A stretch of 64,000 nt of DNA from Escallonia rubra (Eukaryota; Streptophyta; Magnoliopsida; Escalloniales; Escalloniaceae), in contig JAVXUO010000359.1 of NCBI GenBank assembly GCA_033065855.1, forward strand, positions 17,577-81,576, in the 5' to 3' direction. Below are positions 4,901-63,671 of the stretch, piece after piece. The translations under genes and the position numbers were made by a program. The number at the start of each line of letters is the position of its first letter. Position 1 is the stretch's first letter. The notes below the pieces were generated by a model. It was not told the DNA's origin. It saw nothing but the letters and a program-made list of their open reading frames with translations, and did no database searches.

Positions 4901-6296
4901 TGATTTAGAATGAACATCTCTGATTAAGTTGAGATACGTATTTTGAAACTAAAAAAAAGAAAAGGAAGGAAGGAAACAAGTGTGAGTAACCATTTCATGA
5001 AATGGAAGCTACATTTGATCTCCCTGAGGTTTGCAAACAATATCACATATGAACTTACAGTTTCAATTTCACCGCATAAGACCTTGTGCTTTATAATCGA
5101 CTCTAATTGGATATATGGTGGTTTAGCTTCTACATCCATGGCAGATTTTTTCACGTGGCTTTCACATGACTGTTAGTTAGGGGTAATTTTAACAATCGAC
5201 TAAAATGACGAACTCATGAAGGTGACGCGACTTTGCAGATTTAAGAACAAAGTGGCGTTTCAATACCATTACACACAGCGTACTTAAACCTATAGGGGTG
5301 GCTTACACAAAACCCACAATCACACACACATGTTAGTATAGTTGCTTATATTAGACCCCTGTCAATTTCCATCTAGCAATCATACACACGCCCATTGCTC
5401 AAGTGGTTAATAAATAGCAACAACACGAGTTTGCATGGTGTATCACAAAGCAAACCGCGTATAAGGCCCTCGCTCTTTCACCAAGGGGAGGGTCACCCAA
5501 GCAAAATACACATACATTTTCTTTGCAAATACTCAAAATTTCAAAAAACTTACAAAACAAGTGGGGTATGTTCTTACAGAAGTACAAAGCTCCTTGAGAC
5601 TTATCTTGTAAAGATATTCGATTTGGATCAGCGATCGGCATACAGGTTTCCTCACTGTTCATTTTCATCTCATTAAATGGTTGTGAGACTATTAATACAA
5701 AACAAACATGGATGGTAAAACATACCCACATTCGCTCCAATAGAGACAATTGAACAACGATAGGACCCGATCGAAAACGGAAGTAAATCGCAAAGTGTTA
5801 AGTGATGAAACAGAAACTCGGGGGTGTATGAGAAACCATCGGCGAACCTCAATCGGGCTGGGTCAGGTGTAATTAATCCTTGTCATTTTTGTTCTTCTTT
5901 TTGTCGCCAAAACCAAACGAACGCTTCCAACTTTCCTTCATGATGACCTGAATTCAATTTGGCTCAGAGTGAGAGAAATAAGATTCAGGCATCTAAAATT
6001 CGTCTTGAACAATAAAACGTGATTTCGAGGAAGGTTCTTGCGTGAGCTTAAATCCGAAAAGTTCCATAGACGACGACGTCTTATCATCGCGGTACACCAT
6101 TTTGGCACCAGCAAATTCGTCGGTAAGAGCTCATTCTTATTGCAATTCGCAGTCTCCGATCAAAATTAGGCCAATTTTGGACACTGTACCGTACTTTTGA
6201 TCGAGGACTAGGGTTTCGTTCAATTGAAGCCCTAGCTCCTATTATTCCTCACCTCGGGGTTTCATTCCTTACTTCTGTTAGGATTCTGAGTTGCAA
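4901..6296. other. Intergenic region and CCX promoter/5' UTR
   Basis: No gene was recognised between the LTR remnant and the CCX start. The last ~300 bases before 6297 should hold the promoter and 5' UTR of the exchanger gene. I could not place a clear TATA box. Confidence 0.4.
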
Positions 6297-18900: not shown

Positions 18901-19810
18901 GTAGCATTTGTATAATTTTTTGACCTTCTTCAACTTACTCTGACGCCTATCACTCTTTCAAGTTATAGTTCACGGCTTGCCTTCTTTTTCTTATCAAATC
19001 ACAGCCAAGGAGGCTCAGTTGTGTTAGGCATCAGACTTGCCTTGCTTCCTTGCTGTACTAATTGGCCGTTTTGATCCTTATATTTCTTACAACCTCTGAA
19101 ATATGAACCATGTATTCCAAAGTACGAGTTTTTCTTCACTTAATTTTAGCAAATAACAAATGAAGGATTTAGCGCGCAACTTCTAATGTCATACTATAAA
19201 TAGTAGTGTGACTTAATTCTCAAAATTTAGAAATCAAATATCGAGGATCATTTGTCACTGCAACGTACATTGGTCAAAGTTTTATGGTTACGCGAGAATC
19301 ACTAGTCGTCGTCAGTAAGCTATATGACAGTAAATTCGTTACGACGAAGTCCCTTAAAAAATACTCAACACAATTATCGCCAAATATGTTAATTCACGCG
19401 TAACGTGTGAGGTGCTCTAACCAAAGAAATGTAGACCACGAAGAAAAACGAATGTCTACATCCTATCCTAGCCGTAAAATGAAAAATTTTGTACCTCAAA
19501 TCCCCTATCAAACAACCTCGAAATAATTTCAGCATGGGGGTGTATATTATCTCCAAATTATGGATGATTAAATTCATTGTATGTGGACACCTGCAAGGTA
19601 GCTCAACCTCTTACTCCTGTCTCTGTGTGTGTCCAAACAGAGTACAATAATGCGAGGATACAACAAATCAACCGCACCAACGTGGTCGAATCAGGCCCTA
19701 ACGCAGGCACGGCACCTACTTCAACATCTCCTTTTATATCCAAGAACCAGAATATTCACGCACTTTCCTACTTCTAAGGAAGCAGAACACCCCAGACCCC
19801 ACTCTCTCAA
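18901..19810. other. Intergenic between G-gamma gene and SBT1.4, with SBT1.4 promoter
   Basis: No gene is recognised. A TATA-like TTTTATATCC near 19732-19741 lies about 75 bp before the SBT1.4 start and is the likely core promoter. Confidence 0.45.
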
Positions 19811-22141
19811 ATGGCCGTCCCTTCTTCCTCCGCCTTCCTCGTTCTCTTCCTCTGTTTCATCACCCCGCCGCTCACAACCTCCTCGTCGGAACCACCCGAC
19901 CGCCATGAGACCTTCATCGTCCACGTGTCCAAATCAGCCAAGCCGGCCATCTACACCACCCACCGCCACTGGTACTCCTCCATCGTCCGGTCAGTCTCAT
20001 CACACCCGTCGAAGATCCTCTACGCCTACCACCGCGCCGTCACCGGCTTCTCCGCCCGCCTGACCGCCGCTCAGGTCGCCGATCTCCGTCGCCACCCCGC
20101 CGTGCTGTCCGTCCTCCCCGAGTCCGTCCGCCAGCTCCACACCACCCACACCCCTCGCTTCCTCGGCCTCGCCGACTCCTTTGGCCTCTGGCCGAACTCC
20201 AATTACGCCGATGACGTCATCGTCGGGGTCCTCGACACCGGTATCTGGCCCGAAAGGTCCAGCTTCTCCGACGAGGGCCTATCTCCGGTTCCGTCTACCT
20301 GGAAAGGTGTCTGCGAGATGGCGCTGGATTTTCCTTCGTCCGCCTGTAATAAGAAGATCATCGGCGCAAGAGCTTACTTCAGAGGCTACGGAGCTGGACT
20401 GGGGAGTTCGATTGACGAAAGTTTCGAGTCGACCTCGCCTAGAGATACGGAAGGCCATGGGACGCACACGGCCTCCACAGCAGCCGGATCCGTGGTTGCA
20501 AATGCGAGCTTGTTCGGATACGCAAAAGGCGAAGCGAGAGGCATGGCGGCCAAGGCCAGAATCGCCGTTTACAAGATCTGTTGGAGCTTCGGTTGCTATG
20601 ATTCCGATATACTGGCCGCCATGGACCAAGCGATTGAGGACGGCGTCCACGTCATCTCCCTCTCCGTCGGAGCTAACGGCTATGCTCCTCAGTACGACCA
20701 CGATTCCATCGCAATCGGAGCATTTGGCGCCTCACAGCACGGTATTGTCGTGTCCTGCTCGGCCGGAAATTCTGGTCCAGATCCCTACACTGCTGTCAAT
20801 ATTGCTCCATGGATTCTAACCGTCGGTGCTTCCACTGTGGATAGGGAGTTTCCGGCCGATGTAATCCTCGGCGACGGCAGGGTTTTCGGAGGCGTGTCGC
20901 TGTACTCCGGTGATCCATTAGGAGATTCCAAACTTCCGTTGGTCTATGCACAAGATTGTGGAAGCAGATATTGTTACTCAGGAAGGCTCGATTCTTCAAA
21001 AGTCGCCGGTAAGATCGTGATCTGCGATCGTGGAGGCAATGCTAGGGTGGAGAAAGGAAGCGCCGTGAAGCATGCCGGAGGCGCCGGAATGATCCACGCG
21101 AACACGGCCGAAAACGGCGAGGAGCTCCTCGCGGATTCGCATCTCATCCCGGCCACCATGGTTGGTCAGGTCGCCGGAGACAAGATCAGGGAGTACGCAA
21201 GATCGGATCCCTCGCCGACGGCGACGATTGCTTTCCGAGGCACGGTGATCGGAAGTTCGCCGTCGGCGCCGCGAGTGGCGTCCTTCTCCAGCCGCGGGCC
21301 GAACCACTTGACCCGGGAGATCCTCAAACCGGACGTGATTGCCCCGGGCGTCAACATTTTGGCCGGTTGGACCGGGTTATCTAGCCCGACGGATTTGGAC
21401 ATAGACCCGAGAAGAGTGGCGTTCAACATAATCTCCGGTACCTCCATGTCATGCCCACACGTCAGCGGATTGGCCGCCTTGCTACGTGGGGCCTACCCTG
21501 AGTGGACCCCAGCCGCCATAAAGTCTGCGCTCATGACGACCGCTTATTACTTGGACAACACTGGCAAGAACATCACTGATCTCGCAACTGGCAAAGAATC
21601 AACACCGTTCGTCCACGGGTCGGGTCATGTGGACCCAAACCGTGCTTTGGACCCGGGTCTGGTTTACGACATCGACTCGAGTAGTTACGTGGCATTCTTG
21701 TGCACCATTGGGTATGATTCCAGGAGAATATCGGTCTTTGTGAGCGATCCCACTTCGGTGAATTGCGAAGCACAGAAGTTGGCTACTCCGGGTGACCTGA
21801 ACTATCCATCCTTTTCGGTCGTGTTTGGTTCGGACAATGGCGTGGTTAAGTACAAGAGGGTGGTTAAGAACGTCGGGAGCTTGGTGGATGCGGTTTACGA
21901 GGTGAGAGTGAGCGCTCCGCCATCGGTGGAGGTCAGCGTGTCGCCGAGTAAGCTCGTGTTTAGTGAAGGGAGTAAGACAGCGTCGTATGAGATCACGTTC
22001 ACTAGTGCTGCATTGGTGGATGGTGGCGTCGGTTCTACTTTGTCATCGTTTGGGTCGATTGAATGGACCGATGGGACGCACAGTGTTAGGAGTCCAATCG
22101 CAGTTGCATGGCGTTATGATTCCGTGGTTTCTTCTATGTGA
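19811..22141 (+). CDS. SBT1.4: Subtilisin-like serine protease SBT1.4 (SASP type), intronless
   Basis: This is a secreted subtilase of plant family SBT1, closest by eye to Arabidopsis SBT1.4 (senescence-associated subtilisin protease). The 776-residue preproprotein has a signal peptide (about 1-25), an I9 inhibitor prodomain with HETFIVHVSKSAKP and ending near the HTTHTPRFLGL junction (about 110), and an S8 catalytic domain. The triad is complete: Asp142 in GVLDTGIWPE, His216 in GHGTHTAS and Ser545 in GTSMSCPHVSG, with oxyanion Asn320 in SAGNSGP. A protease-associated domain is inserted between the His and Ser motifs (SRYCYSGRLDSSKVAGKIV region). The C-terminal fibronectin-III-like domain begins near GDLNYPSFSVVF. 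Single exon and length are normal for SBT1. The coding sequence is markedly GC-rich at third positions in its 5' half compared with the surrounding DNA. In that half all other frames are shadows. Confidence 0.96.
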   Translation: MAVPSSSAFLVLFLCFITPPLTTSSSEPPDRHETFIVHVSKSAKPAIYTTHRHWYSSIVRSVSSHPSKILYAYHRAVTGFSARLTAAQVADLRRHPAVLSVLPESVRQLHTTHTPRFLGLADSFGLWPNSNYADDVIVGVLDTGIWPERSSFSDEGLSPVPSTWKGVCEMALDFPSSACNKKIIGARAYFRGYGAGLGSSIDESFESTSPRDTEGHGTHTASTAAGSVVANASLFGYAKGEARGMAAKARIAVYKICWSFGCYDSDILAAMDQAIEDGVHVISLSVGANGYAPQYDHDSIAIGAFGASQHGIVVSCSAGNSGPDPYTAVNIAPWILTVGASTVDREFPADVILGDGRVFGGVSLYSGDPLGDSKLPLVYAQDCGSRYCYSGRLDSSKVAGKIVICDRGGNARVEKGSAVKHAGGAGMIHANTAENGEELLADSHLIPATMVGQVAGDKIREYARSDPSPTATIAFRGTVIGSSPSAPRVASFSSRGPNHLTREILKPDVIAPGVNILAGWTGLSSPTDLDIDPRRVAFNIISGTSMSCPHVSGLAALLRGAYPEWTPAAIKSALMTTAYYLDNTGKNITDLATGKESTPFVHGSGHVDPNRALDPGLVYDIDSSSYVAFLCTIGYDSRRISVFVSDPTSVNCEAQKLATPGDLNYPSFSVVFGSDNGVVKYKRVVKNVGSLVDAVYEVRVSAPPSVEVSVSPSKLVFSEGSKTASYEITFTSAALVDGGVGSTLSSFGSIEWTDGTHSVRSPIAVAWRYDSVVSSM

Positions 22142-37354: not shown

Positions 37355-37890
37355 CCTAACGGAGATAGTGTCCCGGAGGAGTCGCCTATTCCGCAGGCCG
37401 AGGTAGCATCCCGGAGGAGCCGTCTACCTGGCCGGCCAAGGTAACATCCCGGAGGAGCCGTCTACCTGGCAGAAGGGGAGTCTTCGTGCCGGAGCACATA
37501 GAGCTCCCTGGCAAAGATAGTGTCCCGGAGGAGTCGCCTATCCCTGCGGGTGAGTCCTTATGCCAGAGCACTTGGAGCGAGTCAAGGTAGCATCCCGGAG
37601 GAGCCGTCTACCCGACTGGCCGAGGTAGCATCCCGGAGGAGCCGTCTACCTGGCGGAAGGGGAGTTGAAGAGCTCCCTGGCAGAGATAGTGTCCCGGAGG
37701 AGTCGCCTATCCCCGCGGGTGAGTCCTTGTGCCGGAGCACTCGGAGCATGTCAAGGTAGCATCCCGGAGGATCCGTCTACCCGACTGGCCGAGGTAGCAT
37801 CCCGGAGGAGCCGTCTACCTGGCGGAAGGGGAGTTGAAGAGCTCCCTGGCAGAGATAGTGTCCCGGAGGAGTCGCCTATCCCCGCGGATG
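37355..37890. repeat. Tandem minisatellite, ~150-170 bp unit
   Basis: The phrase GATAGTGTCCCGGAGGAGTC recurs at about 37363, 37514, 37684 and 37853. Between these are sub-repeats built on TAGCATCCCGGAGGAGCCGT. The last two units are nearly identical over 170 bp. It lies in the solo LTR. Confidence 0.85.
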
Positions 37891-38154
37891 ATGTACACTC
37901 CGGAGAGGGGGTTGAAGCATGTTCCATGACCAAGGCAAGGTGCGCATGGTGTGATGAATGAGTGTGGTGCCCGGGGGCATGATGACATGATTGTGGCGCA
38001 TGGGCGCGATGTAGTGAGTAAGGTGCCGGGGGCACGTTTGTGTCAATGGTGGCGCATGGGCGCGACAGAATACGTATGGTGCCGGGGGCACGGTGGTGTG
38101 ACAGAGAGCATGGGGGCACGGCTGTATCAGCGGCGCGGCGGAGTGTTGGAGTGT

Positions 38155-38475
38155 GACGCCCGAACGTCGGTGACGGGGGTCACGGAGACGACGTCCGGGC
38201 GACGGACGATGAGAGTCGTGGAGTTGTGTCTGGGCGACGGGGTCGCGGAGTTGTGTCCGGGCGACGGGGTCGCAGAGTTGTGTCCGGGCGACGGGGGTCG
38301 CGGAGTTGACATCCGGACGCCGGGCGACGGGGGTCGCGGAGTTGACGTCCGGACGACGTGTGACGGGGGTCGCAGAGTTGACGTCCGGACGACGGGCGTC
38401 GCGGAGTTGACGTCCGGACGACGGGCGACGGGGGTCGCGGAGTTGACGTCCGGACGACGGGTGACGGGCGAAGTG
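38155..38475. repeat. Tandem minisatellite, ~36-bp unit, CpG-rich
   Basis: At least five copies of a unit with core GTTGACGTCCGGACGACGGG, followed by CGACGGGGGTCGCGGA, lie head to tail. One copy is shortened. Shorter derivative units precede it from about 38200. All long frames here are by-products of the repeat. It lies in the solo LTR. Confidence 0.88.
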
Positions 38476-39441
38476 CGACGGTCGAAGCGTCATGAGGCTT
38501 GGTCACGTTCCTTGAGCGTGCATGCTTTGACCGGTTGTGAGCGTTGAAAATGTCTGTTGCTTGTGCGGACGTGTCACGCAAAGTGCGACCACAGTGGGCC
38601 TTTGGGTGCGACCAGAATAGGTTGGGAACAACTCTGAAATTGATACCAAACGCAGGTATACTCTGTTTGCGGTAATTGCTATGGAACATGTGTGGATGAG
38701 CAGGAATCAAAAAGTTTTCAGGGGAAATGCTCCAAATGCTTCTGATATAGGTAAAAAGGTCATTTTGGCTTTCAATCGTTAGGTCGCCGCTCTCTTAACT
38801 CCCAAATCGAGCACCAATTCTTCAAGGGCATGGCAACCTCCTCCGAGCCAATGGTTTAAAGTTAACTTTGATGCTGCAATTCGTATAACTCAATCTTTCC
38901 AAGCGGCGATCATCTGGGATCAGAATGGCATGGCGGTTGCGGCAGAAACAAAAGCTGCAAACGAAAGAGAACCTGTGATTGCAGAAGCAATGGCTGCTTT
39001 AATTTGCTTGCCACAGAAATAGCCTCACGGATGAAGTGCACCCACGTTATTTTTGAAGGCGACGCACAAACGGTGGTTGACTGGCTGAAGGATCATGACT
39101 CCACTCCACACTGGAGCTGTTTTGCAATTATTGAGGAAGCAAGGAAAAAGCTGGAAGTGTTCATCTGTTGGGATTTTTGTAAAGTTAACAGAACCGCTAA
39201 TAATGCGGCTCATAACTTGGCGGCTTGGGCTGATGTCCACCAGTTTTCTGGCCATGTTCCCATTTCATCCATCCCCCCTCCTTTTGTTCATGGATGAAAA
39301 GGAACTGGTTTGTACGTTTGCTGACTTTTAATATACACTTTTGTGTTGCCAAAAAAAAAAAAAAGATTCTACCTAATTATTACGGTGCTGAGTTAATTTC
39401 TCGTGACTCGCTGACACTTCTTTAACCATCAATTGAGTTGT

Positions 39442-39496: not shown

Positions 39497-40731
39497 TAGA
39501 TAATGAAAATTTTAGCCCTCCTGCATAAAATAATATGTATATCTTAAACGAAACTGATAACACTATGGTATCCAAATAACAACATTTGTTCTTTATGGTA
39601 TTATTCAAGTGGTCCTATTTTTATCCTAGGTGTGCTTTAATCCGTATTTCTTTTTTTGGTCAAAGGTCCTTTGTATTCATTAAGCTCAAACATATACAAA
39701 AACGTTTTCAATCTATATACAGTTCTCTGATCTATATACAGTTCTCTGATCTATATACAAAAACATTTTCTTTAATCCGTATTTCGTTTCACGATAAATG
39801 ATTAAGCAAATGCTAACGGGTGCCCTCGCCTTTCTAATACATATACGCGGTATACACTTCTTGAACCCTTGTTTTCTCATTAAAGTAGTTTATAAGTGAA
39901 TCTTGCTTCTTGAGAAATTATAGATGAGCACAGGAAAGCAAAATATCCGGGATGCTCAATTAGCTATAGAGATCACAGTATACATTGCTTCGCCTGGCTC
40001 GGTACCTTTGGGTATAAACAACAGCAAATCCCAACTCATAATGTTCTCTCTCTCTCTCTCTCACATAGTCACATGCAAAAACAAAGAACAAGGTAAAATA
40101 ATAAGTGATGATTAATTAAGAGTGTCGTCTATGACATCAATCCTCTCGTCATGGCTTTGATTTCTACTGCTAGTACCCATGCATGAAGATGCCAACAGCT
40201 TCTGCTTTGTGCATAAGACAAAGGGAAGCTTGGATTAATGTAGCTTTCTTTGAGAGTCGTACATTCAAGATCGAATAATTTAGGACGCGATGATGGAAGA
40301 AGCGTGATAAGATATGTTTAAAGTAAGTCTTTCGAGATGAATACGTTGATATTCTACCAGCTGATTGTATTGTCTCCACTGCAGATCATCAGCGATGGTG
40401 ACAAAGGAAGGGGCTTTAAAGAAATAGAGAACAGAGACTCAGCAACTAATTCAATTCAGAGAATAATTAGGATGTTTATTGGGCCCCCTGTATTTATATG
40501 TTTATGCTTAATAAGTAACTTGAATTAAATAGTAAATACTTCTCTAATATGCATGGTATCTATATTATATATCATGAATATACTTATTTTGATATAACAC
40601 TTCTTTTGGTGTTACATAATTACGTTATAAGTACATATTTAGTTTTTATAATTTAAAAATCGTTAAAAAGTGTAGTTAAAATTAAATTTAAAGGTCAAGT
40701 TTGATACGATAATGATATGTTGTTAACTTAA
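39495..40731. other. Intergenic, no gene recognised
   Basis: AT-rich DNA with a short tandem repeat of TCTATATACAGTTCTCTGA near 39711-39755 and a (CT)n tract near 40045. Frames are short and unremarkable. Confidence 0.4.
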
Positions 40732-41349
40732 AGCTCTGTTTGACAAGTTTTCAGTTTTTTTTTTAAGAAAAGTGGAAAGAGTTTTGGTTTTTTTTTTTCA
40801 CCAGTTTAAAAAACTGGTGGACGTTTGACAGAGTTTATATTTTCAAAAAATAGAAAAGCCCAAGCGTTTGACATGACAGCTCTTTGGTTTTTTTTTAAAT
40901 ATACATTTTCACATAATTAAACAAATATATTATAATATCTTACAAATAACACTACGCCAAAACTGTCCTGTGGTGACGAGAAGGCCTACGGTATAAAAGG
41001 AACCGTAGGTACAAGTTATGTATGCCTACGGTTACGACTTGTACCGTGGCTATTCGTGCTGCTTCGGTTTGGAAGAGCAGTGACGACGGTGCTTACCGTG
41101 GGGGCAGAAGAAGTGTGGCAACTCCCTCTCTCTCTCTCTTCCCCCCCACCCCCGGACAGACGCACGACTCTCTCTGTCTCTCTGTGACTTGTCTCTCAGT
41201 CTCTCACCCACTACCAAACCGAAGACGGCAGACATCACCCCCGACGGCGACACGCTCACACGCCGACACGGTGGCCGGCAGGGGCTTTCACCTCCACCAG
41301 CCGACTCTCTCTGTTGAGGAGAGCTCAGATCTGGAACGAGTGGTCGGAG

Positions 41350-42498
41350 TGGAGCCATGGAAGGAGATGGAGATGGAGATGGACCGGCGAAGAGGTCTTC
41401 TTCTGTTCGAACGAGCTAGGGCTACGCCGAGGTCATTTTCGGAAGTTCGGGCGTGTCTGGAGCCGAACGAGCTCTGTGGCTGCTCGTTCTGGACCAAGCC
41501 GGCCGCGGCATTCTCGACCGATTCGAGTTTCGGCGGTGCCGGAATTGGAGGCGGAAAAGGCGTAGAAGGAGGTGGTGGGGTGCGGGAGGAGGGGGGCGAT
41601 ACGATTTCGTTTGGGGAGGCGAGGAAGCTGATGAGGCTGGTGAACGTGGAGGCGCTCAAGATGAAGCTGGGGACGGAAGGGAAGGAGGAGATCGGCTACT
41701 CGGAGCTGATCGAGGCGTGCAAGAGCATGGGCGTCGGGTAAGTCTCCTGTCACTTCAGAAGCTTTAAATTTCCGATGCTTCAGTTATGTAGCTTCTGGAT
41801 TTTGACTAGAAACCTGCCTCATTATGTCTCGAATGTGGAGATAAGAAACGTTAGGCTTTCAATATGTTCAGCAACAGTATTCTCATGTTGACTGGCTTGA
41901 GCTAAACGTTAGAGAACAACTACGATGAAGCCTTTTCTTCACATAAAAGACCTGTTGGCACAATCTGGTGGGAGGTTGCCAATATAACTACACCAGGAAT
42001 GGGTCGACATCACAAAGTACAATTAGAGTTAGAAAATTCAAAGTAGAAAAACACGCAGGAAAGAAAGTTAGAAAGACGAAAGATAAAATTGGTGTTAGAA
42101 TGTTTATGAGTGAACTTGTCATAAATCTGTAGGAGGCTGAGAGAGTTGAATCCAACTCCTGCCCCTTGAAACTTGGTCTCATAGAAGCTCCATTTTACAG
42201 GTTTGCAAAACTGCTGATGTAGCAAGCCGGGTTGAGAGCCAGCTTAAAATGGTCATCAGGCCCATGTATTCTAATCCACCTATTCACGGTGCCTCTATTG
42301 TGGCTGTCATACTCAAGGACAGGTATTTTTTCCTAGTAGATAATTTATGCAATGCAATCAACCCCTTTTTATTCTTGGACAAGTGAATGATCAACCTTAA
42401 TCAGGAAGGGACGAGGCGGCGGCTTTCGCGCGCGTGCTTGACGAGGCCGGCGTGGTCCTCCTCTTTAGAGATAAGGTTTACCTGCATCCCGATAAGGT
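41350..42498 (+). pseudogene. Captured mitochondrial calcium uniporter (MCU) exons 1 and 2
   Basis: Two pieces of a plant MCU gene lie in the CACTA element. The first piece ends at 41737 and includes ISFGEARKLMRLVNVEALKM and EACKSMGVG before a GTAAGT donor. The second (about 42405-42498) reads [20 protein letters not shown] then DKVYLHPDK, followed by a GT donor. The transmembrane helices and the pore motif of MCU are absent, so the product could not be a channel. Splice borders look intact, although joining the pieces in frame needs an acceptor at 42407-42408 rather than the better-looking one at 42403-42404. The upstream limit of the captured segment is uncertain; a long frame from 41022 runs into it. 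Confidence 0.85.
42201..42322 (+). pseudogene. Captured aspartate aminotransferase exon
   Basis: One exon, between an acceptor AG (42199-42200) and a donor GT (42323), encodes [20 protein letters not shown] and then [16 protein letters not shown]. This is the family's highly conserved segment that includes the IRPMYSNPP motif. It lies in the same orientation as, and within the intron of, the captured MCU gene. No other part of the aminotransferase was found. Confidence 0.9.
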
Positions 42499-43297
42499 AC
42501 TCCACTAGCCTTTTCTGTCGATTTGATGTATGGTTATCTTAGTATATTGGTTATGTAATGCCTTGGAAATGACATATCGTTATCGTTATATTACTAATAG
42601 AAGGTTATCATGACCTATCTTTCACGTGGAGCTGTTAAAAATTGATGGTTGACTAGTTTGGTAGGCAAACTCGTGGTGGTGTGAAGAATGTGTACAGGTT
42701 ATTGGATCTGTTAAATGTTAACAGCAACTGTTTGATTAATTCGTGTAGTGATTGAGGACCCTGATGCTTTCCTATGTATTCAAATGATTTTCTGAGTGTA
42801 TGGTAGGAACTGTTCGGTTTGTGAGGGAGGAGCAGATAAGTGGTGCTCTACTAACTGAAATCGTATCTCCAACCATATGAGCTTGGAAGTTCCAAACATG
42901 TTTTAACATGTACCGATTTACCAACCCCCCACCCCCCCAACCCACCAAAACACCGTTCGTTTATGTTTTTCTTTATGCTTTCTAGCACAGACAATTGGCG
43001 CATGTACATATCTTTTTTTGGTGTATGTCTCTTCAAGAATTATTACTTTTGGCCCACGATAATGTCATGATTGATAGTACAAATCTTATTGCGGCTTTGT
43101 TTGATTGGCAGAACACAATTATTCTGTGTTGTTTGTGATACCATTTTTACAACATGGGCGTAACTGGTTCAGGCAAACTAGAATTGAAAAATAAAATTTG
43201 TTTAGCTTCTCTTTTGTAGTTGTATTTCAACAAATGTAGGCCATGGATAAACTAGAATTGTGTCACCATTGATTGATTGTGTAGCAAGCAGTAGCTA

Positions 43298-44051
43298 GCA
43301 TGCAAGATGGGGGGATCTTGCCTGTGAACTATATTTTCTTAAACTCGTAACATCTTCGTTTCGATAATCTCATAAGACTTAAATGTGCCAGTATTATGAG
43401 ACTTGATAAATCCTGTGTTGTTGCAACTGCATATACTGGATAGTGATAACAACTAAACACACAATATCATCTAGTTAACAGGTAACACATTAAGATTGTA
43501 TATTGCAGGCATGAGCTAATTGTTAATATTGTGGCCGCGGTAGGTTTGCTCTCATGATTGTGGACAGTGCGACTGCACTCTATAGGACAGATTTTTCAGG
43601 AAGGGGAGAATTGTCAGCCAGGCAAATGCATCTTGCAAAATTTTTAAGGAGCCTTCAGAAATTAGCTGATGAGGTAGACTCCGCTCCAACTGGGAAACCT
43701 CATTGCTAGTGGTTTAACTTGCTAGGGATTATCATCATCTGGATGATTTATTGTGCGAAAAAGTTGCTAGACATGTTCTGTTCTACTGTACGTTAAGGAC
43801 CTTCCTCAGTTGATAATTTTGAAGTTATCCTTTCCTGTGTCAGTGCAGTTTGGTGTGGCAGTTGTTATTACTAACCAAGTTGTTGCTCAAGTGGATGGTT
43901 CTGCTCTTTTTGCTGGACCTCAAATCAAACCAATTGGTGGCAACATTATGGCTCATGCTTCTACAACGAGGTCTACCTCTGCATGCAAGATGGGGGGATC
44001 TTGCCTGTGAACTATATTGTCTTAAACTCGTAACATCTTCGTTTCGATAAT
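43298..44051. repeat. Pair of 71-bp direct repeats flanking the RAD51 piece
   Basis: The segment from GCATGCAAGATGGGGGGATC to TCGTTTCGATAAT occurs at 43298-43368 and again at 43981-44051, nearly identical. The two copies bracket the captured RAD51 exons. Confidence 0.85.
43542..43970 (+). pseudogene. Captured RAD51 recombinase exons
   Basis: Two neighbouring RAD51 exons and the intron between them are present. The first (about 43542-43673) reads [20 protein letters not shown], containing the Walker B region LMIVDSA, and ends KLADE before a GT. The second (43849-43970) reads [20 protein letters not shown] and ends MAHASTTR before a GT. The Walker A exon and both ends of the protein are missing, so no functional recombinase can be made. 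Reading frames in both exons are still open. Confidence 0.92.
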
Positions 44052-44185
44052 TATTTTTGTCCACAATGTCAAAATTATGGCATTGTGATTTTAGTTAATT
44101 TGATTGGCATGATAATTATTTTTGTCCACAATCACAATGCTTTATAAAGCATTGTGATTTTAGTTAATTTGATTGGCATGATTAT
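44041..44185. repeat. ~68-bp tandem duplication in the CACTA element
   Basis: AATTATTTTTGTCCACAAT ... GTGATTTTAGTTAATTTGAT occurs twice in a row (from about 44046 and 44112). Confidence 0.8.
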
Positions 44186-45693
44186 GGTTCCCTTACTGGT
44201 GCATCTATTGATCTTGCAATAGCGGTTCTATAAGTTGGTGCTTGGCAGGGGTGTAGTGATAGCATGGAAATGATTTTGTAAATATTTTTTTTGACAAATA
44301 AGGAGCTATGCCTACGGTATGTACCGTAGGCATAGGTTGGGAATAAAAATAAGAATACAGCTATACCTACGGTAGTACCGTAGGCATAGCTATAAAAATA
44401 ATAATACAGCTATGCCTACGGTAGTACCGTAGGCATAGCTGGGAATAAATGGGCTACGGTATAACCGTAGGCATAACCTTCAACCCCCGTAGGCATAGAT
44501 CTAGGGCATCGCCTCTTCTAGCTACGGTATAGTACCGTAGGGATAGGCTATGCCTACGGGACATGGCACCTATACCTACGGTACTGTACCGTAGGCATAA
44601 GCTGGTTTTCTTGTAGTGTAATTAAACATAATTCGCCAAATATATTACGATGTCTTTCAAATAATTAAACAAATACATTACAATGTCTTACACATAATTA
44701 AACAAATATATTACAATGTTTTAAATCCCTAGTCCTTGATTCAAGTGGTATTAACCGAATCTCAACAATAAATCAATGTCTGCGTTCCAAATTCTTGCAT
44801 CAATGCGGTCTCTTAAATTTCCCCATTCTCTTTTGTTGTTGAGGGTTACTTAGATCTGCCAAAGTATATCTGCCAAAGAAAGGTGATAGAGGCGGTGGCG
44901 GTGCTACGAGATGGATGCAATGGAGGTCGAAAACCCTGCACATAGAGAAATGACTTACCGATCTTGTCTTCGAGAGGATTAATGCGACTGAAAAGAGGAA
45001 AAGGGGAACCATACCTTTGCAAATGCAAATTGTGGCTACGTCGAAGAAAGAAGACGGAGGCGGTGACCGGTGGCCAGTGGAGGCGATGGAGGCGATGGGC
45101 TGTGGAGTCGGTGATAGAGTACAGCCGCGGCCGATCGAGCAAATGGATGAAAGAGATGAGAAACCCTAACTTTTAGGTGGGTTTTATACTATAGAAGAAA
45201 AAAGAAATCTGCTGTTGCTAGTGAGGCTCGATTGCTCGAAGCATCGACCACATTAATCCATCCTTCAACCCGCGTAAAAATGGGTTTCCAAAACTAGAAA
45301 AAAGAACAAATTGCTCTTTTTGGAAACGGGCCTATTTTTAAACTCTTGGGCCCTTTTTAAAAACGGAAGTATAACCAAACATCCCATTTTTGTTAGGTTT
45401 AGGCAAAAAAAGAGCAAAAAAAAAAACAGTTGTCAGACGGGGCCTTATTTTTACGATAAGCATACCTAACTTATTTTTTAGTAATTTAAAATTTACTTTA
45501 CCGAGTACTAAGATTTTTTTTTAACTAACCATGACTAGTAAGTAGTAAGTAGGGGTTTTGAGCACACACGTCATGTATACGTATATTGACGGTGGCTGAC
45601 GTTCGCCTTCTTCTTTCAGGGCAAACTCGGTTTCCCTTCTCCACTTCGATCAACACCTGAAGCTGCAACCACTTCACTTCTCAGGTTCCTATC

Positions 45694-55200: not shown

Positions 55201-58190
55201 CACCGACAACAAGCACTCCATGTCTGACCCAAGTCATTGTATCCTTGCCGCTGTTCACCACCACCCTAATTAACCACTAAGCGACAACAACCACTCTAAT
55301 AACCTAACGTCTGATAGAAGGGAGAGGCCGAGTGGAGGGACCTAACTAGAAAGGACCTGACTAGAAAGGGAACTGGGAAAGGAAGGATAAATGCAAGGGG
55401 AAGGGGGCCTAGCAGGAAAAATCTTCAATTGAACCTTGAATGGCTATTCACCACAGAATCCCGCGCCAGCCAGCATGAACCACCACCACACAAACCACCC
55501 GCCCCAACTCAGGTGTTAGAAATTGCACCGGACCCCTAACCGACCAACAGAGAGGACTAGCACAATGCTCGTGATGATACCACGTACCACCATCAACACC
55601 AGTATCCAGCCCAAATCACAGCAAACGGGAGCCAAACCCAAATATCATTCCTAGAGAGAGTTTTAAGGAGAGAAAGAGTCGTAAGGGAAGAACGTTTGGT
55701 CCAACGTAAAGAGCGTTAATTACAAAAATAAATGTACGGATAGTTAGAATGGAACGGAAAACGTTTGGTTTGATGGGCTCTGTTACCACAATTTCAGACC
55801 CCATTATGTTCCCAAATAAAAAAGTTTATTTTTATTCTGTAGGCTCAGAATCAAAACGAAGTGGCCTCTCTAATTGATCAGTTCAGTCATAAATCAATCA
55901 ATCTAGCGATCCGATTTCCGTACGAGATCAACAAATGATGAGATCATAATACGAATCAGTGATGTGTTTTGAATAAAGGAGTTCATGAGGCTTATCTAAA
56001 CTTTGGAGGGTGAAAGAAACTTATAAGGTGATTCATATATTCATCAGTATCTAGTTAGGACAAGTTAATGCTAAATAGGGAAAAAGTTCACACCCAAATA
56101 AGATCTAACCTACACGCATCATATAAAAAGACATGTCGGACTCATTATTTCATCTTGCTTTTGTTTTTCAGTATTACATTGCCTTCTACTTAATAAACAA
56201 CCTACAAGAACGGCCTAGCAAGGTTATTACTTATGAAGCTTGATGACTCCTTGTTTAAGGTTGATTCTATCTGGTTGGTGTCAGACTTATGTAGCTGTAA
56301 CAAATGGTAATCGACGAGAACAGTAGCTCCAACTTACCCAGATACTTGAATCTGATTTAGTATGCAACAGTGCCATGGTCCATCAATTTCTTTATCAGAT
56401 GATGGGTCATCAGTCATCAGCAAGTCAGTGGACTTTGTTTGGCTTCACAGAGTTTTTCTCCTTGTCCACTCACAGATCTCTCCTGTCGATGCTCTACTTT
56501 ATTCTTGTCTTCAAATCTTTGAAACATTATTCACATGGTATTACTCGTTACTATGTCCTACCACGGTAAAATGAAACATGGCATTAATGGTTACATCTTA
56601 GAGGTCCATTATTGAGTGGGGCGCGTTGAAAAAGAACGGTCGATAAAACTTTTGTAGCGAAATGGTGAAAAAAGTGCATTTAAAATAAAATTAAAATTCA
56701 TAAACAACATAGTTTTCCGAAATCACGAGCGTGAAGATAATGAGAAGGCCATCCAAACACAAGCTAAGGCACTATCTGCTTGGAGGAATATATTTTTTGT
56801 AAACCACTTTTTGCACTTACTAGTGTTCGATGTATGTGGAGTCATTTTAAAATGAAAAATCTCTAACAAAGCTAGGAGGATATCACACTTAAATTTCTCG
56901 AAAGTGACTTGATAATCCGAAACACGTAAGTCAATTTTCTAAACCACGTTGATTGTCCACCGACCATACTTCATCAACACCGGTAACCACCAATATCATG
57001 AAATCGATCTGCGTTATGTCTATTTGGTGGATACAAATCAAATAGCTGCCTTTGATCTCATACGCTCGCTCACACATGCTCCCACCAACCCACACACACA
57101 TGTACACACGCATCCACACACGTACGCGCACACTCATAAAGGAATATGTGTATATGCCTGTGCTGAGTTGAAGCTGGTGGAAAAAATAGTTGTTTGAGTA
57201 CGTTGGGTTGGAGGTGTGAGAGGGATGGCCAGCCGGCCGTTGGTTTTGAACTTCTGGTTTTGAATTAGAAGGTCATAATTAGGCCCCTAACTGACCTTGT
57301 AAAATGTTCAAGTCTGTTTGAATGGCCCCGTCTGTGATCAATGTTACCGAACTCAAGAAATATACTTTTTTTTTCCTCTTCTACAAGCATTTTTTGGGAA
57401 ACAATTTTCTCGATCTGTAGGATGTTGTTCGCGAAAGATTATGGCCTCATCCCAAGTAAAAATAGAGGTCTTTGAACAATTTAAAATCGCAAGTTTATAC
57501 TCCTGCGAGAGTGCTTCGTTATTAGAGCGTTGCAACTATCCTCAAACTTTTTAACTTTAGCAATGACTACACTTTAGTTGCACATTTCGCTGTGAAGCCC
57601 AAATCCACTTGTTGCTAGAGGGTGTCATTATTATGGTTGATCCATAAATCAAACCCTAAACATTTCCAAGACTAACTAGCATAATTATGATAGCAGCTTC
57701 AATGTTAGCAACAATATCTAGTGCACGCTATAACACACTACTCGATCTCAGAGGAACGGATTTACCGATTTTATTAATTTTTGATGCAATATAACTAAGA
57801 TTCGTAGTGTCGCATGTACGACACAATACGCCTTTGACAAAAAGTAAAATATACTTTATCGATCTTCTCTGAACCACTAGATCGAGGAATTTATTACTCG
57901 TACTCTATTTGGTCATAACACTAAATTCAAGAAAAAGTTGGCTTGTCCATCACATTGCTTCACGTACACTGCTTTGGTTGAGTTTTCCAGTTTGCATTCT
58001 CATCTTCATGATTAACATGGAATTCTAAGGCTGCCCTTACTACTTTTAATTCCTCAAGACTGGATTTGCCATTCTGGCAAAAGGACGGGGACGTAAAGGT
58101 CCAGTATTGGCTTTCCTCGGCCGCGTCTTTACCAGGAAACCAGAAACTCGGTTTGACTCGGATAGTTCTCCCATGGAAATCTCATAAAGA
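49233..58190. other. 9-kb gene-poor region
   Basis: I recognise no gene. Frames are short and lack family motifs. Low-complexity patches include a CACC/CCACC-rich block (about 55160-55270) and a CA-rich tract (about 57080-57135). The stretch probably holds decayed repeats whose ends I could not place. Confidence 0.4.
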
Positions 58191-58246
58191 GTGCACAAAC
58201 TCGGAAGAGTGGTATATATAGTGACACTTGCAAGAACAAAATTTAA

Positions 58247-58252
58247 AACGTG
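58247..58252 (+). promoter_or_regulatory. AACGTG (T/G-box) in the lipoxygenase promoter
   Basis: AACGTG lies about 55 bp before the TATA box. In jasmonate-responsive promoters this word is a known MYC2-type bHLH site, and LOX genes are commonly induced by jasmonate. A six-base match alone is weak. Confidence 0.3.
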
Positions 58253-58302
58253 TGGCCGGTGTAATCAAATATCTCACCACCTTTTTCATTCACTTGTTAA
58301 AC

Positions 58303-58314
58303 TATATATATATA
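58303..58314 (+). promoter_or_regulatory. TATA box of the lipoxygenase gene
   Basis: TATATATATATA lies about 140 bp before the ATG at 58446, giving a 5' UTR of roughly 110 bp. Confidence 0.6.
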
Positions 58315-58445
58315 CCCACCCGCCTCAGTCCCACCATACGCCATTAATATTTCCCACTTTCTTTCATCAAGCCTCAACTCCTCTCTTTCTCTCTTTCAAG
58401 AAAATCCACTTTCGAAGAGAAAAAGGGAGGAAAAGGATCGTAGAG

Positions 58446-61400
58446 ATGGCTTTGGCTAAAGAAATCATGGGTTCTTCTATGGTGGAAAGAACTTCGTTTC
58501 TTTCTTCATCATCAAAACTTGTTTTGGAGCGTCATTTCTGTTTTAATCCTGTTGTGGTTCCTCTGGAGAGACGAAGGTCATTGCAATTGAAAAGGGTTGT
58601 AAGAGCAGCTCCTACTGTGGCAGCTGTTAGTGACAATCTGGTGAAAGCCGCGGCGGAGAAGCCTGTGAAGTTCAAGGTGAGAGCTGTGGTTACTGTGAGG
58701 AACAAGCACAAGGAAGATTTGAAGGAGACTTTCGTGAAGCAGTTGGATGCTTTTACCGACAAAATTGGCAGAAACGTCGTGTTGGAGCTTGTTAGCACCG
58801 AAGTCGATCCAAGTAAGCCATTTTCTTAACAAGACTTTGCTCTTTACATATGCTAAAGTTTTTCTTTCTGGCAAATTTTTGGTTTTCCTTCATCTGGGTT
58901 TCCCATCAAAGACTGTTAACAGGATTTTGCTAAATGAACCTTAAGAGTCGTTAAGTTGTTCTTGGCAACTTCTTTGGGTTTTCTTCATCTGAGCACTGGG
59001 AATTGTAATCAATTCGATAAACATCTCTGCTTGGAGCTCTGGTTTTGTGGTATATTTCTTGGATCGTTTTAACCGAATTTATCATTTTTTTCTATTTTGA
59101 AGAAACAAGGGCTTCAAAGAAAAGCAAGCCAGCTGTATTGAAGGATTGGTCAAAGAAATCCAATGTCAAAGCAGAGAGAGTTAATTACAGTGCTGAGTTC
59201 ATGGTGGACTCAAATTTCGGGATGCCAGGGGCGATCACGGTGACGAACAAACACCAGAGAGAGTTCTTCATGGAGAGTATAACCATTGAAGGATTTGCAT
59301 GTGGTCCTGTTCATTTTCCCTGCAATTCTTGGGTGCAATCTAAGAAAGACCACCCTGAAAAAAGGATATTTTTCTCCAACCAGGTAAGACATTATTTTCC
59401 CATTATTTAGTTCCGTACTCCGAAGACTTTTCTCGACAGTGCCAGACATATAATACCGTATTTTCTTCCTTCTAGTTGTCATTCATATTATAAGTTTCAA
59501 GGTCAAACTATGTTTTCTAAAGTTGGAATTTGTGAAAGTTGAAAGCAAAACAATGTAGAACGTTCACACGTTCCCACTTGAAGTTATTTTCAGACTAGAG
59601 AGTTCTATCAGGAAGCTTTTCTTCCATCTGATCTGTTAGTTACTTTGACTCTTCTCAACTCTATAGCAGAAGAGGTGCTTGGGATTCCCTGGAGATTTAA
59701 GTTCTTTAGTGTACATTAGTGGGGCTTGACTTGTCTAATCTACAACGCCATTAATTCAGATTTGCCAATAACAGTCCTCTATTTTCAGTATCGAATGTCA
59801 GTATGCCACCTTACAATGGACCAGTTAATGGGTCATACTCAATTTCCCCACTTGGCCATGCTTTTCTTAATGGGAACTTTGGGGTCACAGTTCTAAAAGG
59901 ACCCCCCACCTATAATTGCTACACGTAAATGATTAGATTACCCCAATGAACTCAGAAGCTAATTTTTCAATAACATCATTGATATGAGCAGCCATATCTA
60001 CCAAATGAGACACCGGCGGGGCTGAAAGCATTGAGAGAGGAAGAGCTCAAAGATCTGAAGGGTGATGGCCAAGGCATCAGGAAATTGTCTGATAGGATTT
60101 ACGATTTCGACGTGTACAATGATCTTGGAAATCCAGATAAGGGTATCGATTTCGCTAGGCCAACACTTGGGGGCAATGATACACACCCATTTCCAAGGAG
60201 ATGTCGTACAGGACGCCTTCCAACTGATACAGGTAGTGTCTGCTTCTTCAATTTTAAGTTGATGATATATATCTTGTGTTTTAAGCGCTACTTCGAATCG
60301 CTTAGGCATAGAACTTGAACTTTTTTTTGGTGCTATTGTTGCGTAGATTTACATGCAGAGAGCCGCGTGGAAAAGCCATTACCTATGTACGTGCCAAGGG
60401 ACGAACAGTTTGAGGAGACGAAGCAGAATACATTCTCGGCTGGGAGGCTTAAAGCAGTGTTGCACAACCTAATTCCTTTACTAATGGCCAGCATCTCTTC
60501 AGATAACCATGACTTCAAAGGTTTCTCACACATCGATAGCCTGTACAGCGAAGGCCTCTTACTCAAACTAGGCCTGCAGGATGACCTCTTGAAGAAGCTC
60601 CCTCTGCCCAACTTGGTCAGCAAGATCCAAGAGTCTAGCCAGGGTGGTGGCCTTCTCAAATATGACACTCCAAAGATAGCAATCAGTGAGCACTCATCAC
60701 CCCTTTAATTAAAATCTTCTATTACCACTCCTAGAAACCACCCGCCCTCCAATCTCACATGCTATTTTGCTCACAACACCGACAAAACTTTACTAAACGA
60801 CGTGCAAAAATTACATTGCAAAATGCCAAAGGAACGTGCATCATCGCATTACGAAAATAAAAAATGGACTATGACGACCCATTAACGCATTATCTTCACG
60901 TGCAGAGGACAAGTTTGCGTGGTTGCGAGATGACGAATTTGCCCGCCAAGCAATAGCAGGGGTTAACCCTGTTACAATCGAGAAGCTTCAAGTTTTTCCA
61001 CCAGTGAGCAAGCTGGACCCCGAAATCCACGGTCCCCAGGAGTCTGCCCTCAGAGATGAAGACATTGTCGGCCATCTCAATGGCATGACAGTTCGACAGG
61101 TAATGATCAACCTCGCTTCCCGTCGCTTTTGGTTGGCCAAAAGGTGGTCCTTAATCAGCCTTTTGTATACCATCCACAGTTCCACTCAACAAAGTTGGCT
61201 CTACTTTTTTGTTCTAATTAACAGGCTTTGGAGGCGAATAAGCTGTTCATCGTGGACCACCATGACATTTACCTACCATTTCTTGACCGGATTAATGCAC
61301 TTGATGGCCGCAAAGCATACGCAACACGGACCATCTTTTTCTTGACTCCACTGGGCACCCTCAAGCCTATCGCCATAGAGCTCTCGCTCCCATCGGCTGG

Positions 61401-63671
61401 TCCTAGCTCCCGGTCCAAGCGCGTGGTCACACCTCCGGTGGACGCCACTGGCAACTGGATGTGGCTGCTAGCCAAAGCCCACGTGTGCTCCAATGATGCG
61501 GGTGTTCATCAACTTGTCAATCACTGGTGAGCAACAAAATGAAATCATGCCTTGATGTCACATTTGAGAGCTCCAAAAGCACTTTCGAGACATAAAATGT
61601 TAATCTTTAGCACGTTTTGACTATGAATTCTGCATTGTGAATCACTTCTCGAGCAAATTCAAAGCGGTCCCGAACGATGCGTGTGCTAAGATAAATGTGC
61701 CCTTTTGGATCTGCAGGTTAAGGACGCATGCGTGCTTGGAACCCTTTATATTGGCGGCTCACAGGCAACTGAGCGCGATGCACCCCATATACAAGCTTCT
61801 GGACCCGCACATGAGATACACGTTGGTAATCAATGCACTGGCGCGCCAAAGCTTGATCAACGCTGATGGTGTGATAGCGTCTTGCTTCACTCCTGGTCGC
61901 TACTGCATGGAGATGAGTTCCGCTGCGTACAAGAGCTTCTGGCGATTCGACTTAGAGAGCCTTCCTGCTGATCTTATCCGAAGGTAATCCTAGGGTTTTG
62001 TATTGCCTCATTTGGGGAGAGCCCAATCTTCTTAACTTTCTTCTGCCAACATACAAGAGTCCTACTGGTTCCAAAACATTTTCAAAGCCTTCATGAATAA
62101 TTTTTTCAACTTTCTTCTGATATGGATCTTTGCATGAATAGAAACAAAATATGCTTCTTGGCAGAGTAGTAACAAGGAATTTTTATCAGACAATTGTAAC
62201 AAGGAATGCTTATCTCTACACCAACATATATGCTTGCATATATGTCAGTGGTCGATCAGAAGCTAATAATTTGTCACTGATGCCTTTTTAATGATAAACG
62301 CGGAGGTGACTATTAAAAGCATGATTTAGTGTAAAAATAAGCACTCCCGTTCTAGTAAGCTGCCATCTTTCTAGAGGCAAAATATCATTATTGATAACTC
62401 AAAATTCACTTTTGGAGTTCTCTAGCAAAGTGTATCCAATCAGTAACTAAACGATTGAATTAGGGGTCGAAGAATAAAGAATTTAAGCGTGCAACGTGGA
62501 TTTTAGGAAGAGCTTACAACTTTCATATAGTAATTATTATTGATCACTATTTTTGCCTATACTTTTAGCAATTTCTTTAGCGTCATTTTGTTGCAACTAA
62601 ACTAGAGGCAAAATACCATTATTAATAAAACAAAGTTCACTTTTGGAGTTTCTCTTGCAATGAAGTGTCTCCAATCAGTAACTAAGCAGTGAAATCACTA
62701 TTGAATTAGGTGTCTGAATAATAAAGAATTTAAGCTGCGAGACGGATTTTAAGAAGAGGTTACAACTTCCATATAATAGTAGTCATTATTTGTCACCATT
62801 TTTACAGATACTTTTAGAGACTTCTTTAGCTTCATTGTGTTGCAACTTAAAAAACCAAGTTGCAACAATATTTTTCACTATGAAATCTAATGAATCCTCC
62901 TCTCAAATATGCAGGGGTATGGCAGTACCTGACCCAACGCAGCCACATGGACTGAAGCTCCTGATCGAGGACTACCCATACGCCTCAGATGGGCTCATGA
63001 TTTGGGCCGCCATCGAGGATTGGGTCCGCACCTACGTGAACCACTACTACCCAGACTCGACCGTGGTCTGCAACGACAAGGAACTCCAAGCCTGGTACTC
63101 CGAGTCCATCAACGTCGGCCACGCCGACCTCCGCCATGCAGACTGGTGGCCCGAGTTGGCCACCCCAAACGACCTCACTTCCATCCTCACCACCCTCATC
63201 TGGCTTGCATCCGCACAGCACGCTGCATTAAACTTCGGCCAGTACCCCTACGGCGGGTACGTGCCGAACCGGCCACCGCTCATGCGGCGGCTGATCCCCG
63301 ACGAAAACGACCCCGAGTACGCCATCTTCATGTCCGACCCGCAGAAATACTTCCTGTCGGCGTTGCCCAGCTTGTTGCAATCGTCCAAGTACATGGCCGT
63401 GGTCGACACGTTATCGACTCACTCGCCCGACGAGGAGTACATTGGCGAGAGACAACAATCTTCGACCTGGTCAGGAGATGCCGAGATGATCGAGGCGTTT
63501 TACCGGTTCTCGGCAGAGATTGGGAGAATAGAGAGGGAGATAGAGGAGAAGAATGTTGATGCTAGGCTGAGAAATAGGTGCGGTGCTGGGGTGATACCGT
63601 ATGAGCTTCTTGCACCCAGTTCTGAACCAGGGGTGACTTGCAGAGGTGTCCCAAATAGTGTTTCCATATGA
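58446..63671 (+). CDS. LOX3: Plastid 13-lipoxygenase, LOX3/LOX4 type, eight exons
   Basis: The enzyme adds O2 at carbon 13 of linolenic/linoleic acid in plastids, the first step to jasmonates. Exons are 58446-58812, 59103-59383, 59992-60232, 60347-60685, 60906-61099, 61225-61526, 61717-61983 and 62915-63671, all GT-AG in phase, giving 915 residues, normal for type-2 LOX. The N-terminus [11 protein letters not shown] and the following basic, Ser-rich ~60 residues form a transit peptide. The PLAT domain includes [20 protein letters not shown]. Iron ligands are His574 and His579 ([17 protein letters not shown]), His766 and Asn770 ([17 protein letters not shown]), and C-terminal Ile915 (RGVPNSVSI). 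Cys631-Phe632 (SCFTPG) at the regiospecificity site fits 13-LOX. LOX3-like wording is seen throughout ([34 protein letters not shown]). Intron 7 is 931 bp and contains a tandem duplication. Confidence 0.96.
62371..62849. repeat. Tandem duplication (~230-250 bp) in lipoxygenase intron 7
   Basis: Two diverged copies (62371-62600 and 62602-62849) both start CTAGAGGCAAAATA and both contain TTCACTTTTGGAGTT, TCCAATCAGTAACTAA, AATAAAGAATTTAAGC and TTGTTGCAACT-like ends. The second copy ends 65 bp before the exon 8 acceptor. Confidence 0.88.

What the first reader, a model, noticed from the sequence alone, without database searches (positions are those of the whole stretch)
40950..44618. Pack-CACTA with pieces of MCU, aspartate aminotransferase and RAD51 in one orientation
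Seen: CACTA termini, an exact TAA duplication, subterminal CTACGGTA arrays, and in-frame exon pieces of three unrelated conserved genes with their splice borders kept. Known: CACTA and MULE elements can capture gene fragments. Inference: all pieces face the same way, so a chimeric spliced transcript is possible, and it could also feed small RNAs against the three donor genes.
Basis: partly seen in the sequence, partly recalled or inferred. Interest (0 to 1): 0.8.

Follow-up and report, generated by a model that had tools for sequence, protein, structure and literature searches.

The report
Jumping gene carrying spliced-together gene fragments
This is a plant jumping gene of the CACTA type that has picked up pieces of three unrelated host genes one after another, and sister copies in the same genome preserve stages in between, so the order and the likely way in which it collected genes can be read off.

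Summary
Window 40950-44618 is a non-autonomous CACTA element with a TAA duplication; 38 other copies of the repeat it landed in align across the insertion point. At least four more full-length relatives exist in this genome, each with a 3-bp duplication. The copies record an order: MCU and the non-coding piece first; then RAD51, inserted into the non-coding piece with a 71-bp duplication; AAT last (3 differences in 672 bp), replacing 11 bp of MCU exon 1, a site still whole in copy C62 and sister C2344. Deletions followed; the window copy lost the MCU start codon. All pieces face one way and keep most splice borders, but not one frame: the predicted mRNA stops 6 codons into the AAT exon. A chimeric transcript is possible; a long chimeric protein from this copy is unlikely. 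Transcripts and small RNAs are untested. It is a new member of a known kind (Pack-CACTA, like soybean Tgm-Express1). Its value is the preserved intermediates, which favour internal break repair with foreign templates over fusion of neighbouring insertions.

The parts
40947..40949 (.). left TAA target-site duplication
   Evidence: one TAA in the 5 aligned empty sites
40950..41411 (+). 5' terminal/subterminal region of the CACTA family (CACTACGCCAAAA...)
   Evidence: aligned in the 4 other copies and shared with many sister elements
41412..41414 (.). deletion junction private to the window copy (3 unexplained bases); about 350 bp, with the MCU start codon, are missing relative to C62, C1010, C1037 and C168
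41415..41737 (+). MCU exon 1, first part (start codon lost)
   Evidence: 97% to donor C2596; end
41738..42409 (+). AAT piece: begins at the 5' splice site GTAAGT of an AAT intron, contains one full exon, ends inside the next intron
   Evidence: 3 differences in 672 to donor C2838
42201..42322 (+). AAT exon, 122 nt ([14 protein letters not shown]...)
42410..43260 (+). MCU rest of exon 1 (coding to 42496) and part of intron 1; 273 bp of the intron deleted at about 43173-43176
   Evidence: 97.9% to C2596 over 765 aligned bases; the 273 bp are present in C1010, C62 and the donor
43257..43368 (+). non-coding donor 4 (contig C3058), left part; ATTG microhomology with MCU
43298..43368 (+). 71-bp direct repeat, first copy (donor-4 sequence present on both sides of RAD51)
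43366..43982 (+). RAD51 piece: part of an intron, exon 43544-43673, intron, exon 43849-43970, a few bases of the next intron
   Evidence: 14 differences in 606 to donor C1222; PF08423; coordinates
43981..44051 (+). 71-bp direct repeat, second copy
43981..44081 (+). non-coding donor 4, right part (right border read by eye)
44145..44618 (+). 3' terminal region with CTACGGTA/TACCGTAG near-palindromes
   Evidence: 97-99% identical at 32 further places, not counting the MCU-RAD51 copies; repeats
44619..44621 (.). right TAA target-site duplication

Best explanation
A non-autonomous CACTA transposon (Pack-CACTA) moved in trans by a CACTA transposase. It gained host DNA in several separate internal events: breaks inside the element were mended by copying or ligating DNA of other loci (abortive gap repair / filler DNA / template switching), and the enlarged element then transposed again. 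Shown: CACTA ends; 3-bp duplication in 5 of 5 copies, window included; empty sites; donors on separate contigs; order of gain MCU + donor 4, then RAD51, then AAT; later deletions of 273 bp and about 350 bp. Inferred: the repair mechanism, and trans-mobilisation. The pieces are DNA copies with introns, so a spliced mRNA was not the source. Any transcript of the window copy would be spliced but end early, so this copy most likely acts, if at all, at RNA level.
For: Five copies with duplications TAA, AGT, ACC, TAA, CGT and different flanks. 38 of 39 non-self matches to the joined flanks span the insertion point (40 of 843 candidates scored); 5 of 5 aligned show AAATAA|TTAAAC unbroken. C62 has MCU exon 1 whole at the AAT site, and so has sister C2344; the 4 AAT-bearing copies share one junction in which 11 bp of MCU are replaced by one extra G plus 672 bp of AAT. 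RAD51 sits inside donor 4 with 71 bp present on both sides. Sister C2344 keeps the MCU start and a 38-column match (92%) to the end of the donor-4 piece, with an OPT-family (YSL-like) piece between. Divergence from donor, window copy: AAT 3/672, RAD51 14/606, MCU 9/330 and 15/765 by BLAST. Five of the 7 inner junctions considered show 2-5 bp microhomology; in 20,000 sets of random breakpoints the sum was reached with P = 0.0002. No family ends were found within the 9.9-kb stretches around 4 donors or the 3-kb stretch of the fifth. Transposase_21: 150 of 150 scored places (2,228 candidates) pass the cut-off, many with an uninterrupted frame.
Against: The two AAT junctions have no microhomology, so one mechanism for all is not proven; overlaps were read by hand, junctions with the terminal regions were left out, and sister C2258 passes from MCU to YSL with 2 unexplained bases, which I took as a later deletion. 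No autonomous partner with these ends was found: the one candidate (C2266) has its transposase in an element with other ends. Donor 4 differs from the element by a 92-bp gap, so a closer donor may exist. Contigs are unplaced, so separate loci means different contigs only. One search scored 40 of 757 candidates, so further copies or closer donors may be missed.
Confidence: 0.75

Rival explanations
1. Fusion of neighbouring insertions: two family members flank a gene segment, lose their inner ends and move as one (the model described in PMC8903248 and the review PMC13317346 for Pack-CACTA).
For: It is the model in print for Pack-CACTA (sections read), and it could explain the first capture, MCU, whose left side joins the 5' terminal region directly.
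Against: RAD51, AAT and YSL are each bounded on both sides by older captured DNA, not by element ends; the donor stretches examined hold no family ends.
Confidence: 0.12
2. The element expresses a selected chimeric gene (fusion protein).
For: The MCU leader side and ATG were captured in the ancestor, splice sites are kept, the genes face one way; copy C1037 could give 177 aa (MCU start, shifted MCU, AAT exon) or, with the AAT exon skipped, 252 aa (MCU start, shifted MCU, both RAD51 exons); sister C2344 has a 283-aa MCU-YSL frame.
Against: No copy keeps MCU, AAT and RAD51 in one frame; C62 and C1037 have frameshifts in MCU; the window copy lost the MCU ATG; C1010b, sister of C2344, has its MCU-YSL frame broken. 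No dN/dS test was run.
Confidence: 0.05
3. The element acts on its donor genes through small RNAs.
For: Stretches at about 95-99.6% identity to MCU, RAD51 and AAT in several copies; conflict of this kind is discussed for Pack-TYPE elements in PMC8903248 (Discussion read).
Against: No small-RNA data; the pieces are all in one orientation, and the 4 inverted repeats of 20 nt or more in the element all lie in the 3' terminal region, none in donor sequence.
Confidence: 0.2
4. Assembly chimera or a real host gene misread as a transposon.
For: Reading of the window alone could not exclude it.
Against: Five copies with distinct flanks and a 3-bp duplication each, and empty sites.
Confidence: 0.01

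Closest known systems
Tgm-Express1 of soybean (PMC1947982; abstract and three sections read)
   Same: CACTA element with exon and intron pieces of several unrelated host genes; splice sites kept
   Different: Five donors, 5.7 kb, inserted in F3H intron 2, with chimeric transcripts shown from the host promoter; here no transcript data, but sister copies record the order of capture
Pack-CACTA / Pack-TYPE elements of Arabidopsis, rice and maize (PMC8903248; abstract and sections 9, 10 and 12 read)
   Different: Here new pieces lie nested inside older captured pieces, which tandem fusion of insertions does not easily explain
CACTA elements of Chenopodium with captured gene fragments (PMC8978399, passages seen)
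   Same: Captured fragments; that paper refers for the mechanism to Rubin and Levy (abortive gap repair)
   Different: Fragments of one gene per element in the passages seen; no nested series there
Pack-TIRs of animals, gap-filling and FoSTeST models (PMC8277862, passages seen)
   Same: Template switching with short microhomology (1-36 bp, median 2 bp in that paper)
   Different: Animal hosts; the gap-filling evidence in the passages seen concerns chiefly single-copy Pack-TIRs
Maize Helitrons with stepwise capture (PMC3288121, search listing only)
   Same: Stepwise gain of gene fragments (from its title)
   Different: Rolling-circle elements with other ends (recalled)

Membership tests
CACTA (En/Spm) superfamily | terminal inverted repeats beginning CACTA | tested here: met
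   CACTAC at both ends; beyond the first 6 bases the match between the ends is patchy
CACTA (En/Spm) superfamily | 3-bp target-site duplication | tested here: met
   5 of 5 copies; 12 of 12 sister elements with both ends recognised, 6 of 18 sister loci lacked a recognised end; empty sites
CACTA (En/Spm) superfamily | subterminal repeats in both orientations | tested here: met
   12 CTACGGTA units in both orientations, 11 of them at the 3' end
CACTA (En/Spm) superfamily | moved by a CACTA transposase | tested here: inconclusive
   many Transposase_21 frames in the genome; none recognised between these ends in the elements looked at
Pack-CACTA (Pack-TYPE) | non-autonomous, interior holds host coding DNA that exists elsewhere as a gene | tested here: met
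   donor loci with further exons, RAD51 and AAT exons partly by my reading of frames; the 6 frames of 100 aa or more that lie in the element have no Pfam match, so no transposase
Pack-CACTA (Pack-TYPE) | multiplied by transposition after capture | tested here: met
   4 copies share the AAT junction but sit at different sites
Pack-CACTA (Pack-TYPE) | capture by fusion of neighbouring insertions (a proposed mechanism rather than a defining feature) | tested here: inconclusive
   RAD51, AAT and YSL are bounded by older captured DNA, which speaks against it; it stays open for MCU
Tgm-Express-like expressed exon carrier | chimeric spliced transcripts | not testable with these tools
   no RNA data

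The most novel reading that the evidence does not exclude
The family is a serial exon trap: an ancestor that took in the MCU leader and start codon carries its own expression cassette, and repeated break repair inside it swaps in new exons in the sense direction (all 6 gene pieces identified so far, MCU, AAT, RAD51, YSL, MRPL53 and ribosomal L14/L23e, face the same way), now and then giving an expressed fusion such as the 283-aa MCU-YSL frame of C2344.
Probability: 0.1. Interest if true: 0.7.

Novelty: new member of a known kind. Interest (0 to 1): 0.42.

Why it matters
How DNA transposons take in pieces of unlinked genes is still argued; a 2026 review (PMC13317346, one section read) leaves room for an undiscovered mechanism beside fusion of neighbouring insertions. 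Here one genome holds the element before AAT, after AAT, after later deletions, a side branch in which another gene fills the same interior, and the donor loci. Junctions can thus be read at base level, and the models make different predictions. For the biology of this plant the finding may be ordinary: the window copy itself probably encodes no new protein.

Tried and rejected
Autonomous partner: the 10.4-kb C1010 element was taken as a candidate but held MCU-YSL DNA and, judging by one frame (recalled resemblance), a nested retroelement. C2266, with a Transposase_21 frame and our 3' end on one contig, was a candidate too, but the transposase follows another CACTA start that lies inside an MRPL53-bearing element; the stretch between 51500 and 57300 of that contig was not fetched.

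MCU-AAT microhomology: I first took TAAGTC, present in both, as the switch point; base by base the junction has one unexplained G and does not fit, so it was counted as zero.

Divergence of the MCU intron part was dropped for C1037, C168 and the window copy because the end anchor occurs twice and the alignment was wrong there; BLAST values were used instead. C168 has 8 AAT differences from the window and C1037 copies (11/672 to the donor); it is in the data and I have no explanation for it.

Novelty in print: judging by titles and starts of abstracts in the listings, I saw no Pack-CACTA with a preserved series of nested captures; only open-licence papers were searched, and the Arabidopsis Pack-CACTA paper (PMC6379663) is not held.

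Full report
What is there. Window 40950-44618 starts with CACTACGCCAAAA and ends with TTTTCTTGTAGTG; TAA lies on both sides. The window is part of contig C1178 of a 566-Mb genome whose name is not given; the genes say that it is a plant (my reading). The 12 CTACGGTA/TACCGTAG units of the window all lie in the element, 11 of them near its 3' end, where they form near-palindromes.

It is a true insertion. The joined flanks (one TAA kept) gave 41 matches: the two halves of the site itself, one short match, and 38 that span the insertion point; 40 of 843 candidates were scored. Five of the 38, fetched and aligned, read AAATAA|TTAAAC without a break. The element thus sits inside another, abundant repeat.

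Relatives. One search (40 of 757 candidates scored) found four more full-length copies, on contigs C168, C1037, C1010 and C62. Their 3-bp duplications are AGT, ACC, TAA and CGT, and their flanks differ. Patterns of 30 bases from the ends occur 207 times (3') and 119 times (5') with up to three mismatches, against none for reversed controls. Of 18 sister loci fetched, 12 had both ends recognised, and all 12 of these carry matching 3-bp duplications; C348 and C1515 are so alike that they may be duplicates.

Donors. MCU: contig C2596, a two-exon gene whose second exon matches PF04678. AAT: C2838, with further exons matching PF00155. RAD51: C1222, where I read the other exons in the frames; the captured exons match PF08423 at E = 2.4e-41. 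A fourth donor, C3058, shows no clear gene. In copy C62 the MCU piece is one stretch of 1,555 aligned bases at 95.9% that includes the start codon.

Order of events. C62 has MCU, donor 4 and RAD51 but no AAT, and its MCU exon 1 is whole at the AAT site; so it is in sister C2344. The four AAT-bearing copies share one junction: MCU is cut after GTCG, one G is added, 672 bp of AAT follow, and MCU resumes at GACGAGG; 11 bp of MCU are missing. C62 cannot simply have lost AAT, since it holds those 11 bp. C1010 still has 273 bp of MCU intron that the window, C168 and C1037 copies lack; only the window copy lacks the about 350 bp with the MCU ATG. Divergence agrees: for the window copy AAT differs from its donor at 3 of 672 sites, RAD51 at 14 of 606, MCU at 9 of 330 and 15 of 765 aligned. 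The C168 copy is out of line, with 11 of 672 AAT differences. With recalled plant rates of 6.5e-9 to 1.3e-8 per site and year the AAT capture would be a few hundred thousand years old; the rate for this species is unknown.

How the pieces came in. RAD51 lies inside donor 4, with 71 bp of donor 4 on both sides. In C2344 an OPT-family, YSL-like piece (99% to contig C2072; PF03169; the name YSL is recalled) lies between the MCU start and a short match to the end of the donor-4 piece, so it replaced the interior of an MCU-donor 4 element. Overlaps at the junctions considered: MCU/donor 4 ATTG (4), donor 4/RAD51 AAT (3), RAD51/donor 4 GC (2), MCU/YSL CTCC (4), YSL/donor 4 AATGG (5), the two AAT junctions 0. 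The sum of 18 was reached in 0.02% of 20,000 sets of random breakpoints. Junctions with the terminal regions were not counted, and C2258 shows 2 unexplained bases between MCU and YSL. New DNA thus enters between older captured DNA, with short overlaps, small losses or local duplications: marks of break repair with foreign templates. Fusion of two neighbouring insertions, the model described for Pack-CACTA (PMC8903248 and PMC13317346, sections read), would put element ends beside each capture; none are seen there, nor in the donor stretches examined. For MCU, the first capture, that model stays open.

What it can express. Native splice sites remain for the 3' end of MCU exon 1, the AAT exon and both RAD51 exons, all on one strand. 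With canonical splicing the window copy reads MCU out of frame into AAT and stops after FAKLLM; so do C1010 and C168; skipping the AAT exon ends these three at 133-135 aa. C62 has a 1-bp loss in MCU and ends at 87 aa. C1037 has a 4-bp insertion in MCU, after which the frame happens to fit: 177 aa with the AAT exon, or 252 aa with it skipped, the latter reading both RAD51 exons. Frameshifts in 2 of 5 copies and the lost ATG in a third speak against selection for a protein; no dN/dS test was run. Chimeric transcripts are plausible by analogy with Tgm-Express1 (PMC1947982, sections read) but untested here.

The wider family. Sister elements carry an MRPL53 piece (PF10780 for C2143; the same frame is visible in C2322, C2652, C1597, C3181, C348 and C1515), ribosomal L14/L23e (PF00238, C897) and MCU-YSL (C2344, C1010b, C2258; C3195 by DNA match). 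All six gene pieces identified so far face the same way as read from the CACTAC(A/G)CCAAAACTG end; by chance this has a two-sided probability of 0.03 (my arithmetic). In C2541, C1066, C1027 and C22 I identified no gene, and only some of their frames were searched; C472 and C1409 were not examined for content.

Verdict. A well-formed Pack-CACTA, a new member of a known kind, with an unusually complete record of how it was built.

Noticed in passing
L019 1099-1947 (contig C2344): Sister element with an unbroken 283-aa frame in which the MCU N-terminal part runs in frame into an OPT-family (YSL-like) transporter piece.
   Followed up: partly
L021, L022, L026-L029, L033; L030: Other members of the same family carry an MRPL53 piece (seven elements) or a ribosomal L14/L23e piece (one).
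   Followed up: partly
L038/L039 (contig C2266 46410-57983): A likely element with our 3' end, another 5' end (CACTACAACAAATATG) and TTC on both sides holds MRPL53 DNA and, nested in it, the start of another CACTA with an unbroken 776-aa Transposase_21 frame.
   Followed up: partly
window 40720-45440: The element sits inside an abundant repeat (at least 38 other copies) whose outer ends look like weak terminal inverted repeats (AAGCTCTGTTTGACAAG / AAGGCCCCGTCTGACAAC).
   Followed up: partly
window 41738-42409 versus L009: The AAT piece of copy C168 differs at 8-9 of 672 sites from the other three copies, some of them clustered, while those three differ among themselves by 0-1; assembly error or local gene conversion.
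   Followed up: no
L012 and window 44080-44618: The C62 copy and the AAT-bearing copies have different 3' subterminal types, so 3' ends seem to have been exchanged between family members.
   Followed up: no
window 37876-38502 and neighbours: Long overlapping frames made of short repeated units (RPDVNSATPVAR...).
   Followed up: no
window 6282-8267, 19778-22141, 58188-63671: Frames that look like a cation/calcium exchanger, a subtilisin-like protease and a lipoxygenase (names recalled, not searched).
   Followed up: no
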